Of a stretch of DNA of 64,000 nucleotides, positions 15,444-17,569 are shown piece after piece. The DNA is from Mycobacterium sp. GA-0227b. Its GTDB lineage: Bacteria > Actinomycetota > Actinomycetes > Mycobacteriales > Mycobacteriaceae. The stretch lies in NCBI RefSeq assembly GCF_001499855.1, contig NZ_LQIK01000008.1:1-64000 (forward strand), given 5' to 3'. Under the pieces are notes generated by a model. It did no database searches, had not been told where the DNA came from, and worked only from the letters and a program-made list of their open reading frames with translations. Each line of letters starts with the position of its first letter. Position 1 is the stretch's first letter. Both the position numbers and the translations under genes were made by a program.

Positions 15444-16325
15444 ATGTCGGATAGTTCGGGGACGACGATGAAGGTGGCGTACGAGGACGTTCAAGCGCAC
15501 TACGACATCTCGAACGATTTCTTCGGTCTCTTCCAGGATCCGACACGGACCTACAGCTGTGCGTTCTACGAGCGTGACGACATGACGCTCGAAGAGGCGC
15601 AGATCGCCAAGATCGATCGCGCGCTTCGCAAGCTCGACCTCCAGCCGGGGATGACGCTGCTCGACGTCGGCTGCGGCTGGGGCTCGGTGATGAAGCGCGC
15701 GATCGAGACCTACGACGTCAACGTCGTCGGGCTGACGCTCAGCCGCAATCAACGTGCGCTCGGCCAGGAGATCCTCGACGCGGTCGAGACGGACCGCTCG
15801 CGGCGGGTGCTGCTCAAGGGCTGGGAGGAGTTCGACGAGCCGGTCGACCGCATCGTCTCCATCGAGGCGTTCGAGGCGTGGCCCAAGTCGAAGTACAAGG
15901 CGTTCTTCGACACGTGCTACCGGCTGATGCCCGCCGACGGCCGGATGGTGCTGCAGACGATCATGGGACACCCGCTCAAGCGCTGGCCCGAGATGGGGAT
16001 TCCGATCGTGATGTCGGACTTGAAGTTCATGCGGTTCATCGCCAAGGAGATCTTCCCCGGCGGCGCGGTGCCGTGCGACGAGGACGTCTACGAGTACGCG
16101 GGCAACGCGGGTTTTTCCGTCGAGGAACTCGACACGATGACCCCGCACTACGTCCGCACGCTCGACACCTGGGCGGAGAAACTGGAGGCCGCCAAGGACC
16201 AGGCGATCGCGGTGACGTCGCAGGAGGTCTACGACCGGTACATGAAGTACCTCGTCGGGTGCTCGGACTTCTTCCAGCGCAACGTCAGCTACGTCGGGCA
16301 GTTCACGCTCACGAAGGCTCAGTAA
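15444..16325 (+). CDS. Mycolic acid methyltransferase family protein (UmaA/MmaA1-like)
   Basis: This 293-residue protein follows the previous methyltransferase by 85 bp. AGGAGG lies 10 bases before ATG 15444. SAM motif LLDVGCGWGS is at 72-81. The active-site region reads IEAFEAWPKSKY in place of FEHFG, as in UmaA and MmaA1, and the tail NVSYVGQFTLTK also fits UmaA. This suggests a methyl-branch or methyl-transfer outcome and not cyclopropanation; that is inference. The upstream gap contains gatatataag, a candidate -10, so it may have its own promoter. The 3' end overlaps the convergent ketosynthase-like gene by 7 bp. Confidence 0.88.
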   Translation: MSDSSGTTMKVAYEDVQAHYDISNDFFGLFQDPTRTYSCAFYERDDMTLEEAQIAKIDRALRKLDLQPGMTLLDVGCGWGSVMKRAIETYDVNVVGLTLSRNQRALGQEILDAVETDRSRRVLLKGWEEFDEPVDRIVSIEAFEAWPKSKYKAFFDTCYRLMPADGRMVLQTIMGHPLKRWPEMGIPIVMSDLKFMRFIAKEIFPGGAVPCDEDVYEYAGNAGFSVEELDTMTPHYVRTLDTWAEKLEAAKDQAIAVTSQEVYDRYMKYLVGCSDFFQRNVSYVGQFTLTKAQ

Positions 16326-17569
16326 GCGCCGAACGCAAGCGACACGTTGTCGCCGCCGAGGCCGAACGAGTTGCTGATCGCGTAGCGGTAGTCGCCGCTG
16401 CGGGCGTTGTCGGCGACGACATCAAGGTCGATCTCGGGGTCTGGTTCTTTCAGGTTGAGCGTGGGCGGGATGACCCCGTCGCGCAGCGCCTGGACCGTCA
16501 GCACCGCCTCGATGGCGCCGGCGGAACCCAGAGAGTGCCCCAGGGCCGCCTTCGGTGCATAGACCGCCGGGGCGTGGTCACCGAACGCGTTACGGATGGC
16601 GCGGGCTTCGGCCAGATCACCGAAAACGGTCCCGGTGGCGTGCGCGTTGATGTGGTCGATGTCCGTCGGTGTCAGTCCGGCCAACTCGATCGCCCGGGTG
16701 ATCGCGTCACCGGCCCGCAGGCCGTCGGGGTCGGGCTTGACGATGTCGTAGCCGTCGGAGGTGATGCTTGCGCCCATCAGCCGGGCCAGCGGTTGCGCCC
16801 CCCGCGCCTTGGCGTGCTGCTCGGTTTCGATGAGCATCAGCGCGCCGCCTTCGCCGAACACCATGCCGTCGCGGTGCTTGTCGAACGGGCGACAGGCGCC
16901 GGCCGGGTCGTCGTTACTGGTCGACAGCAGCTCTTGCATGCAGAACGCCGCGACCGGCACTGCCTCGATGTGGGTCTCGACGCCCCCGCAAATCACCATG
17001 TCGGCCTCACCGAGGACGAGCTGTCGCCACGCCAGGGCGATGGCCGCGGCACCCGAGGCGTCGGCCATCACCGGTGATATCACGCCCGCCTTCGCCTGTC
17101 GGTCCAATCCGACGGCGGCGGCCGCGCCGTTGGGCATGTACATCTGAATCGTCAGCGGAGAGACAGCGCGCAGGCCCTTCTGCCGCCACAGGTCGTGCTG
17201 GAGCGGAATCTCTTCCGTGCTGCCCAACGCCAGCCCGACCGACACCGACAACCGTCGGGTGTCGACCTCGGGCTCGCCCGCGGCCGCCCAGAGCCTGCGG
17301 CTCAGGACGGTGGACATCTTCTGCATGTACGACGTCCGGCGCCGCTCCACCCGCCCGAGCTGTTCGTCGAGATCCTCCAGAATGGCCCCGCCGATGCGCA
17401 CGGGCGAGTCGAACTCCTCGATGAACCACTTGTCGAGGGGCCGGATGCCGCTTCGGCCCTCCTGGAGTTGCTGCCAGGTGTCCTCGGCGTCGGCCGCCAG
17501 CGAGGTGGTCGAGACGACAGCGGTCACCACGACGTCGGGGAATGCGTCGCCAGTCTTGAGCGCGGCCAT
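16319..17569 (-). CDS. KasA/KasB-like beta-ketoacyl-ACP synthase lacking the catalytic cysteine
   Basis: This 416-residue protein matches KasA over its whole length (FPDVVVTAVVSTTS, PLTIQMYMPNGAAAAVGL, CGGVETHIEAVPVAAF, NSFGLGGDNVSLAFG). The nucleophile position, VSACSSG in KasA as I recall it, reads VMADASG here: Cys is replaced by Asp170, codon GAC at 17060-17062. The other catalytic residues remain: His310 in NAHATGT, Lys340 and His344 in PKAALGHSLG. It therefore cannot form the normal acyl-thioester and may be a decarboxylase or a structural partner. A GAGGAG ribosome site lies 8 bases before ATG 17569. The gene is convergent with the mycolate methyltransferases. Confidence 0.88.
   Translation of the reverse strand: MAALKTGDAFPDVVVTAVVSTTSLAADAEDTWQQLQEGRSGIRPLDKWFIEEFDSPVRIGGAILEDLDEQLGRVERRRTSYMQKMSTVLSRRLWAAAGEPEVDTRRLSVSVGLALGSTEEIPLQHDLWRQKGLRAVSPLTIQMYMPNGAAAAVGLDRQAKAGVISPVMADASGAAAIALAWRQLVLGEADMVICGGVETHIEAVPVAAFCMQELLSTSNDDPAGACRPFDKHRDGMVFGEGGALMLIETEQHAKARGAQPLARLMGASITSDGYDIVKPDPDGLRAGDAITRAIELAGLTPTDIDHINAHATGTVFGDLAEARAIRNAFGDHAPAVYAPKAALGHSLGSAGAIEAVLTVQALRDGVIPPTLNLKEPDPEIDLDVVADNARSGDYRYAISNSFGLGGDNVSLAFGAY

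What the first reader, a model, noticed from the sequence alone, without database searches (positions are those of the whole stretch)
16319..17569. KasA-like ketosynthase with catalytic Cys replaced by Asp, beside two mycolate methyltransferases
The protein aligns with KasA over its whole length, yet the nucleophile motif VSACSSG reads VMADASG; His310, Lys340 and His344 are kept. Cys-to-Gln ketosynthases decarboxylate malonyl-ACP and Cys-less chain-length factors act as partners, but Asp at this site is unusual. Convergence with cyclopropane-synthase family genes suggests a role in mycolate tailoring, perhaps as a priming decarboxylase, a KasA/KasB heterodimer partner or a scaffold for the methyltransferases.
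Basis: partly seen in the sequence, partly recalled or inferred. Interest (0 to 1): 0.72.

Follow-up and report, generated by a model that had tools for sequence, protein, structure and literature searches.

The report
KasB-like protein missing its catalytic cysteine
About a quarter of the mycobacterial genomes searched carry a relative of the mycolic-acid chain-lengthening enzyme KasB whose catalytic cysteine is replaced by aspartate, and it likely no longer lengthens chains itself but would help neighbouring methyltransferases work on them.

Summary
The 416-aa ORF at 16319-17569 (-) is a full-length KasA/KasB-family protein, nearest to KasB, with Asp170 in the nucleophile seat. This is no local mutation. 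The 120 best homologues listed all have Asp, as do the close copies in 76 of 294 genomes of the genus. Among 257 distinct relatives only Cys (157) or Asp (100) was found. The 120 best homologues of a divergent copy have Asp in 112, His in 7, Gly in 1. The Asp clade lies inside the KasB lineage. Other condensation parts changed too: ACP-docking Arg213 (0 of 100), malonyl-cavity Phe236 (2 of 100), gate Phe404 (39 of 100), His345 (79 of 100). His310 and Lys340 remain, and most acyl-channel residues checked. The gene is under purifying selection (dN/dS 0.11-0.20). Of 100 distinct Asp proteins, 56 lie convergent to and within 150 bp of the same methyltransferase gene (MTb); genes of tandem kasA-kasB loci have no such neighbour within 4 kb (0 of 86). 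Most likely it is a non-condensing acyl-chain-binding partner or docking subunit for mycolate methylation. That mechanism is inferred; partner and substrate are untested. Decarboxylation is less likely but not excluded. The paper searches made listed no description of it.

The parts
16319..17569 (-). KSD: KasB-like protein, 416 aa, Asp170 in place of the nucleophile Cys
17060..17062 (-). codon 170 (GAC, Asp), the nucleophile seat; FabF Cys163 / KasA Cys171
16640..16642 (-). codon 310 (His, kept); FabF His303
   Evidence: 99 of 100 Asp rows keep His
16550..16552 (-). codon 340 (Lys, kept); FabF Lys335
   Evidence: 98 of 100 Asp rows keep Lys, 2 Arg
16535..16537 (-). codon 345 (His here; Asn or Thr in 21 of 100 relatives); FabF His340
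16931..16933 (-). codon 213 (Glu here); FabF Arg206, an ACP-docking residue, Arg in 156 of 157 Cys-type relatives and 0 of 100 Asp-type
   Evidence: residue role from PMC7138838
15441..16325 (+). MTb: mycolic-acid methyltransferase family, convergent with KSD, 3' ends overlap by 7 bp; two conserved His positions of the family replaced (Ala146, Gln172)
14414..15358 (+). MTa: mycolic-acid methyltransferase family, closest to CmaA1 among solved structures, checked motif residues kept
11914..14289 (+). flippase-like (LPG_synthase_TM) membrane protein; next to the trio in a minority of loci, not part of the conserved core
   Evidence: 10 of 27 loci incl. window
10416..11852 (-). cytochrome P450; recurrent in the wider neighbourhood, not part of the conserved core
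   Evidence: 13 of 27 loci incl. window

Best explanation
This is a KasB-derived protein with Asp in the nucleophile seat that likely no longer condenses, and it is predicted to act as a non-condensing subunit that holds a long acyl chain, docks on the FAS-II elongation complex and brings the two neighbouring methyltransferases to the growing meromycolyl chain. Shown here: the Asp is fixed in a clade that lies within the KasB lineage; condensation-specific sites (nucleophile, malonyl cavity, gate, one ACP-docking Arg) have changed while the fold and most acyl-channel residues checked stay; the gene is under purifying selection; and it is linked to the MTb-MTa pair in many, not all, species. 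Inferred: loss of condensation, chain binding, complex formation with KasA/KasB and the methyltransferases, and the effect on mycolate type. Untested: the partner, the bound chain, and whether Asp170 does chemistry.
For: Asp in the 120 best homologues listed and in 76 of 76 genomes with a close copy, of 294 searched. Main Asp clade 100/94 support inside the KasB lineage, 100/100. Cys (TGC/TGT) to Asp (GAC/GAT) needs two base changes (codons), so Asp is not the easiest loss. Of 152 columns at least 98% fixed in 157 Cys-type relatives, 49 are relaxed in the Asp set, including Arg213 (0 of 100), Phe236 (2 of 100), His275 (3 of 100), Phe404 (39 of 100), His345 (79 of 100). Match to the kasA/kasB consensus letter falls to 0.49 in the malonyl cavity (lone Cys paralogues 0.98) but stays 0.82 in the acyl-channel class (0.86). 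The 120 best homologues of a divergent copy have His345 in only 3, His310 in 103, and His or Gly instead of Asp in 8, yet keep channel residues Met145 (119) and Asn147 (120). dN/dS 0.11-0.20 over 12 genomes (KasB 0.04-0.08, MTb 0.09-0.24). MTb convergent within 150 bp for 56 of 100 distinct Asp proteins and for 1 of 130 Cys proteins. Published two-hybrid and Co-IP data tie mycolate methyltransferases to KasA and KasB and propose that the condensing enzymes, with the dehydratase pairs, address them to a complex (PMC3245277, passages).
Against: His310 and Lys340 are nearly invariant (99 and 98 of 100), which a mere scaffold would not need. Asp itself is kept more strictly than an empty seat would require. 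Not the whole channel is kept: Tyr125 66 of 100, Gly114 23 of 100, Ala169 79 of 100, site 214 varied; of these only Tyr125 was in the channel class. 11 of 76 genomes have the gene without an MTb orthologue, and 54 genomes have MTb without a close copy. In L196 a Cys-type KAS holds the same convergent place, and in L124 a Cys-type KAS precedes MTa and MTb on the same strand. The gene is not in one operon with the methyltransferases (opposite strand), so linkage could be inherited synteny. Against the nearest genome the gene's dS (0.31) is about three times that of MTb, MTa and KasB (0.08-0.11), so it has not shared all of its neighbours' history. The loss of Arg213 could also mean weaker docking of AcpM. 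No interaction or activity data exist here.
Confidence: 0.45

Rival explanations
1. An enzyme with a new reaction: Asp170 with His310 and Lys340 acts as acid/base or nucleophile on an acyl-AcpM (for example hydrolysis or transfer of a stalled or modified chain).
For: Asp, His310 and Lys340 kept together: 76 of 100 Asp rows have D-H-H-K and 20 have D-H-N-K at 170/310/345/340. Asp sits at the start of a helix, as the nucleophile of a KAS does (model secondary structure). Asp rather than a one-step replacement was fixed (codons).
Against: Homologues of a divergent copy tolerate His or Gly in the seat (8 of 120) and Asn, Ser or Gln for His310 (17 of 120). No natural KAS with Asp as nucleophile showed up in the search listings made for it (most listed papers not opened).
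Confidence: 0.2
2. A malonyl-AcpM decarboxylase like KSQ, feeding acetyl groups or limiting malonyl-AcpM at the methyltransferase site.
For: His310 and Lys340 kept; His345 kept in 79 of 100 or replaced by Asn in 20, and a Cys-His-Asn set serves in KAS III (recalled).
Against: The malonyl cavity is remodelled (Phe236 to Met in 92 of 100, Phe238 to Leu in 42 of 100), loop 2 is changed (His275 to Asp in 96 of 100), Arg213 is lost in all 100. Of the 120 homologues of a divergent copy, all lack at least one of the two catalytic His and 14 lack both. Asp is not the Gln of KSQ.
Confidence: 0.12
3. A protein for another lipid path; the methyltransferase linkage is hitch-hiking in a block of genes.
For: 11 of 76 genomes have it without MTb; 26 of 84 distinct Asp proteins with 4 kb on both sides have no MTa/MTb-like gene there; convergent, not co-transcribed.
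Against: The trio recurs in different surroundings, and other KAS lineages (L124, L196, L129, L130) sit beside such methyltransferases too. Presence of the two genes is associated over 294 genomes (65 both, 11, 54, 164 neither; Fisher odds ratio 18, not corrected for descent).
Confidence: 0.15
4. A decaying duplicate of kasB without function.
For: dN/dS is 2.0 to 3.4 times that of KasB in the same genome pairs; many catalytic-site columns are relaxed.
Against: dN/dS 0.11-0.20, no stop inside any copy of 375 residues or more taken into the trees, Asp kept over a deep clade, some channel residues invariant.
Confidence: 0.04

Closest known systems
KasB / KasA (FAS-II beta-ketoacyl-AcpM synthases; PDB 2gp6, 2wgd)
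   Same: whole length and fold: 69% identity, rmsd 1.2 over 412 residues to KasB; 59%, 1.5 over 413 to KasA; His310, Lys340 and most acyl-channel residues checked
   Different: Cys to Asp; Arg213, Phe236, Phe404 and loop 2 changed; lone gene beside methyltransferases, not in the kasA-kasB tandem
Chain length factors (KS-beta) of type II PKS, e.g. actinorhodin CLF
   Same: a KS fold without the Cys; CLFs lack catalytic residues, and the chain channel forms at the KS/CLF interface (PMC12664062, passages)
   Different: no other ketosynthase hit on its contig; His310 and Lys340 kept; nearest relative is KasB; no dimer shown
AmcG, the 'cyclization factor' partner of the ketosynthase AmcF in cispentacin synthesis
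   Same: a partner without the functional motifs that pairs with a ketosynthase and is proposed to serve another step (PMC10698177, passages)
   Different: polyketide path, encoded with its partner; no close sequence tie tested
KSQ decarboxylating ketosynthases
   Same: nucleophile replaced, His/Lys set largely kept
   Different: Asp, not Gln; malonyl cavity and gate changed; stand-alone gene (KSQ features recalled)
KasA C171Q laboratory mutant (2wgf, 4c6w)
   Same: a KAS with the nucleophile replaced that mimics the acylated form (PMC9519891, passages)
   Different: man-made single change; here a natural clade with many linked changes
HadAB / HadBC dehydratases of FAS-II
   Same: precedent in this pathway for a subunit believed catalytic (HadB) with partners from which specificity seems to come (PMC3245277, passages)
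   Different: different enzyme and fold (recalled: hot-dog)

Membership tests
KasA/KasB protein family (homology) | passes NCBIfam NF005916 cut-off | tested here: met
   727.7 bits against 560
KasA/KasB protein family (homology) | KAS fold over the whole length | tested here: met
Condensing beta-ketoacyl-ACP synthase | nucleophile Cys | tested here: not met
   Asp170 in the window
Condensing beta-ketoacyl-ACP synthase | two catalytic His and Lys | tested here: met
   His310, His345, Lys340 in the window; His345 not conserved in the clade
Condensing beta-ketoacyl-ACP synthase | condensing activity | not testable with these tools
   needs an assay
Chain length factor (KS-beta) | Cys absent | tested here: met
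Chain length factor (KS-beta) | catalytic residues lost | tested here: inconclusive
   His310 and Lys340 kept in 99 and 98 of 100; partly lost in homologues of a divergent copy
Chain length factor (KS-beta) | encoded with an active KS partner | tested here: not met
   only ketosynthase hit on contig C8; the genome's kasA/kasB lie on C7
Chain length factor (KS-beta) | heterodimer | not testable with these tools
   only single chains were folded
KSQ decarboxylase | Gln in the nucleophile seat | tested here: not met
   Asp
KSQ decarboxylase | malonyl-ACP decarboxylation | not testable with these tools
   needs an assay
Mycolic-acid methyltransferases (MTa, MTb) | passes NF040660 cut-off | tested here: met
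   461 and 451.8 bits against 390
Mycolic-acid methyltransferases (MTa, MTb) | conserved Cys, Glu and two His of the family (roles recalled from CmaA1) | tested here: inconclusive
   MTa relatives (49) keep them; MTb relatives (68) keep Glu in 68 and Cys in 58, but have Ala for one His in 68 and Gln or Glu for the other in 68

The most novel reading that the evidence does not exclude
A chain-control subunit in fatty-acid (FAS-II) rather than polyketide synthesis: a KasB gone silent as a condenser that pairs with KasA or KasB and with a dedicated methyltransferase pair, so that the elongating meromycolyl chain is held and methylated at a set length. It would be a fatty-acid counterpart of the chain length factor, arisen within the mycobacteria.
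Probability: 0.25. Interest if true: 0.8.

Novelty: new variant of a known kind. Interest (0 to 1): 0.58.

Why it matters
How mycobacteria place cyclopropanes, methyl branches and oxygen functions at set points along the meromycolyl chain is an old question. A natural, widespread, Cys-less KasB tied to two methyltransferase genes gives a handle on it in harmless species: delete the gene and read the mycolates. Database names for these proteins (beta-ketoacyl-ACP synthase) are likely wrong about their function.

Tried and rejected
Local mutation or sequencing error: rejected (120 of 120 listed homologues). Decay: rejected by dN/dS; the MTa values that call gives for eight of the genomes (G011, G104, G137, G040, G220, G102, G132, G114) are artefacts of short flanks and were dropped. 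A single origin of Asp as the only reading: not shown. One search asked for three changes, for two; L115 and L125 are Asp, L124 beside them is Cys, so either two gains or one gain and one return (L125 was thinned out). My recollection that MSMEG_4301 is a KAS paralogue was wrong: it is an acyl-CoA synthetase (PMC9431677; abstract and first of six parts of the text read). A first model from a 29-row alignment was poor (pLDDT 66.5) and replaced. The neighbourhoods of loci without MTb were listed but gave no clear partner. One search used FabF numbers off by one and was redone. Counts held repeats of the same gene and were redone on distinct proteins. Site classes follow residue lists of two papers, but I had seen before grouping them, so they are descriptive, not a blind test; the docking class did not separate the groups (0.70 against 0.74 in lone Cys paralogues). 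The line for an MTb orthologue (E up to 2.4e-125) was drawn after seeing the list. PMC8358021 (aryl polyene KS/CLF; passages) gave nothing that bears on Asp in the seat.

Full report

Is it conserved? Yes. The 120 best homologues listed of 6805 found (75-92% identity) all have Asp. Named carriers include M. celeriflavum, M. rutilum, M. flavescens, M. phlei, M. novocastrense, M. litorale and M. asiaticum. In genome contigs, of 80 named loci kept (305 relatives found), 26 were KSD genes, all Asp and all at 71% identity or more; every hit under 70% that covered the residue was Cys-type. In a profile search of 294 genomes of the genus, 76 hold a close copy: 74 score 749 bits or more and two (G045, G052) are cut copies. 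All 76 were read as Asp (30; 24; 22). This is a lower bound for Asp-type copies, because more divergent ones score among KasB; at least 9 further genomes hold such a copy (G019, G035, G055, G060, G067, G136, G151, G153, G195). Over 257 distinct relatives there were 157 Cys, 100 Asp and nothing else; this set was enriched for third copies and is not a random sample. The 19 distinct copies read from other genera all have Cys. A search from a divergent copy (L120) gave 120 listed proteins with Asp in 112, His in 7 and Gly in 1.

Where it came from. With motif columns removed and other genera as outgroup, the Asp clade lies inside the KasB lineage (100/100), main Asp clade 100/94. L115 and L125 (Asp with the older VSA/ISA context) fall beside it together with L124, which has Cys. 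Searches need two changes: two gains, or one gain and one return; one search needed three. Cys codons are TGC/TGT and Asp codons GAC/GAT, so at least two base changes were needed.

What else changed. FabF and KasA residue roles were taken from PMC7138838 and PMC9519891, passages read. Of 152 columns at least 98% fixed in 157 Cys-type proteins, 103 are kept at 90% or more in the 100 Asp proteins and 49 are not. Lost or relaxed: Arg213 (FabF Arg206, ACP docking) 0 of 100, Phe236 (KasA Phe237, malonyl cavity) 2 of 100, Phe238 58 of 100, His275 in loop 2 3 of 100, gate Phe404 39 of 100, His345 79 of 100. Kept: His310 99, Lys340 98, Met145 and Asn147 100, Glu119 95, Glu202 96, Pro205 99, and the docking Arg77 and Arg78 at 96 each. 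Near or in the channel but not kept: Gly114 23, Ala169 79, Tyr125 66. Compared with the commonest kasA/kasB letter, the malonyl cavity keeps 0.49 (lone Cys paralogues 0.98), loop 2 0.47 (0.82), the acyl-channel class 0.82 (0.86), the docking class 0.70 (0.74) (classes grouped). So docking sites as a class do not separate the groups; only Arg213 does. In the 120 homologues of L120, His345 remains in 3 and His310 in 103, while Met145 (119) and Asn147 (120) stay; all 120 lack at least one catalytic His and 14 lack both.

Selection. Against 12 genomes, dN/dS of KSD is 0.11-0.20, of KasB 0.04-0.08, of KasA 0.04-0.11, of MTb 0.09-0.24. The gene is constrained, less than KasB and about like MTb. One odd point: against the nearest genome (G107) dS is 0.31 for KSD but 0.08 for MTb, 0.11 for MTa and 0.10 for KasB, and it is also highest for KSD in the other pairs with usable values, which may mean exchange of this gene between strains or weaker codon constraint.

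Neighbours. MTb and MTa are mycolic-acid methyltransferase family members. MTb overlaps the KSD 3' end by 7 bp on the other strand. On distinct proteins, 56 of 100 Asp copies have MTb convergent within 150 bp, against 1 of 130 Cys copies. With 4 kb on both sides, 58 of 84 Asp copies have an MTa/MTb-like gene, 4 of 19 lone Cys copies, and 0 of 86 tandem kasA-kasB genes. The trio recurs in different surroundings. Across 294 genomes: both 65, KSD only 11, MTb only 54, neither 164 (odds ratio 18, not corrected for shared descent). At least 9 of the 54 carry a more divergent Asp copy, and G027 and G030 a Cys copy beside MTb. MTb is itself altered: Ala in place of a family His in 68 of 68 relatives and Gln or Glu in place of another, while MTa keeps both (the roles of these residues are recalled).

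How it likely works. The pattern, seat replaced, malonyl pocket, gate and one docking residue changed, much of the channel kept, points to a protein that holds a chain rather than extends it. Two-hybrid and Co-IP work found mycolate methyltransferases binding KasA and KasB and proposed that condensing enzymes and dehydratase pairs address them to particular elongation complexes (PMC3245277, abstract and passages). A KasB copy freed from condensation could serve as such an address. The acyl channel of KasA is formed partly by a helix of the other subunit (alpha5', PMC9519891), so a silent partner could also shape the channel of an active KAS, as chain length factors do in type II PKS (PMC12664062, passages). 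All of this is inference. Against it stand the near-invariant Asp-His310-Lys340 set, which suggests that the seat still does something, and the genomes without MTb.

Novelty. Searches of the paper library listed no paper that, by title or start of abstract, describes a Cys-less KasA/KasB paralogue. Seven papers were opened, in part; the others were seen as listings only, and subscription journals are mostly not held. I rate it a new variant of a known kind.

Noticed in passing
2731-6511 (-): Selenocysteine genes side by side: SelB (2731-4416), SelA (4404-5756) by Pfam and a tRNA-Sec (6417-6511) by ARAGORN.
   Followed up: no
21336-30911: Likely remnant of an integrated element beside tRNA-Tyr (30828-30911): phage-type integrase (28898-30109), part of a terminase large subunit (26927-28204), AAA domain (23177-23881), DUF7340/7341 (24198-24845).
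   Followed up: no
7879-9711 (-): Ser/Thr protein kinase domain fused to a family-3 solute-binding domain; members of this cluster occur in 16 of 27 KSD loci incl. the window.
   Followed up: no
15441-16325 (+): MTb and its 68 distinct relatives have Ala and Gln/Glu where the family has His, so this methyltransferase may itself be altered or inactive.
   Followed up: partly
16319-17569 (-): Synonymous divergence of KSD from the nearest genome (dS 0.31) is about three times that of MTb, MTa and KasB in the same pair (0.08-0.11): possible exchange of this gene alone.
   Followed up: no
L196:4013-5230 and L124:2078-3319: Cys-type KAS genes in the place of KSD: L196 convergent with MTb at 13 bp and MTa; L124 followed by MTa and MTb on the same strand. 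Other KAS lineages have been recruited to the same methyltransferase pair.
   Followed up: partly
L120, L122, L128, L137, L139, L141, L143, L146, L195: Divergent Asp copies without MTa/MTb-like genes in the flanks held (4 kb; shorter in L139 and L146); homologues of L120 show Asn at the second His (117 of 120), a changed first His (17 of 120) and His or Gly in the seat (8 of 120).
   Followed up: partly
L008, L014, L027 (M. asiaticum): KSD without MTb/MTa nearby; two other genes (clusters 19 and 20) are shared downstream instead.
   Followed up: no
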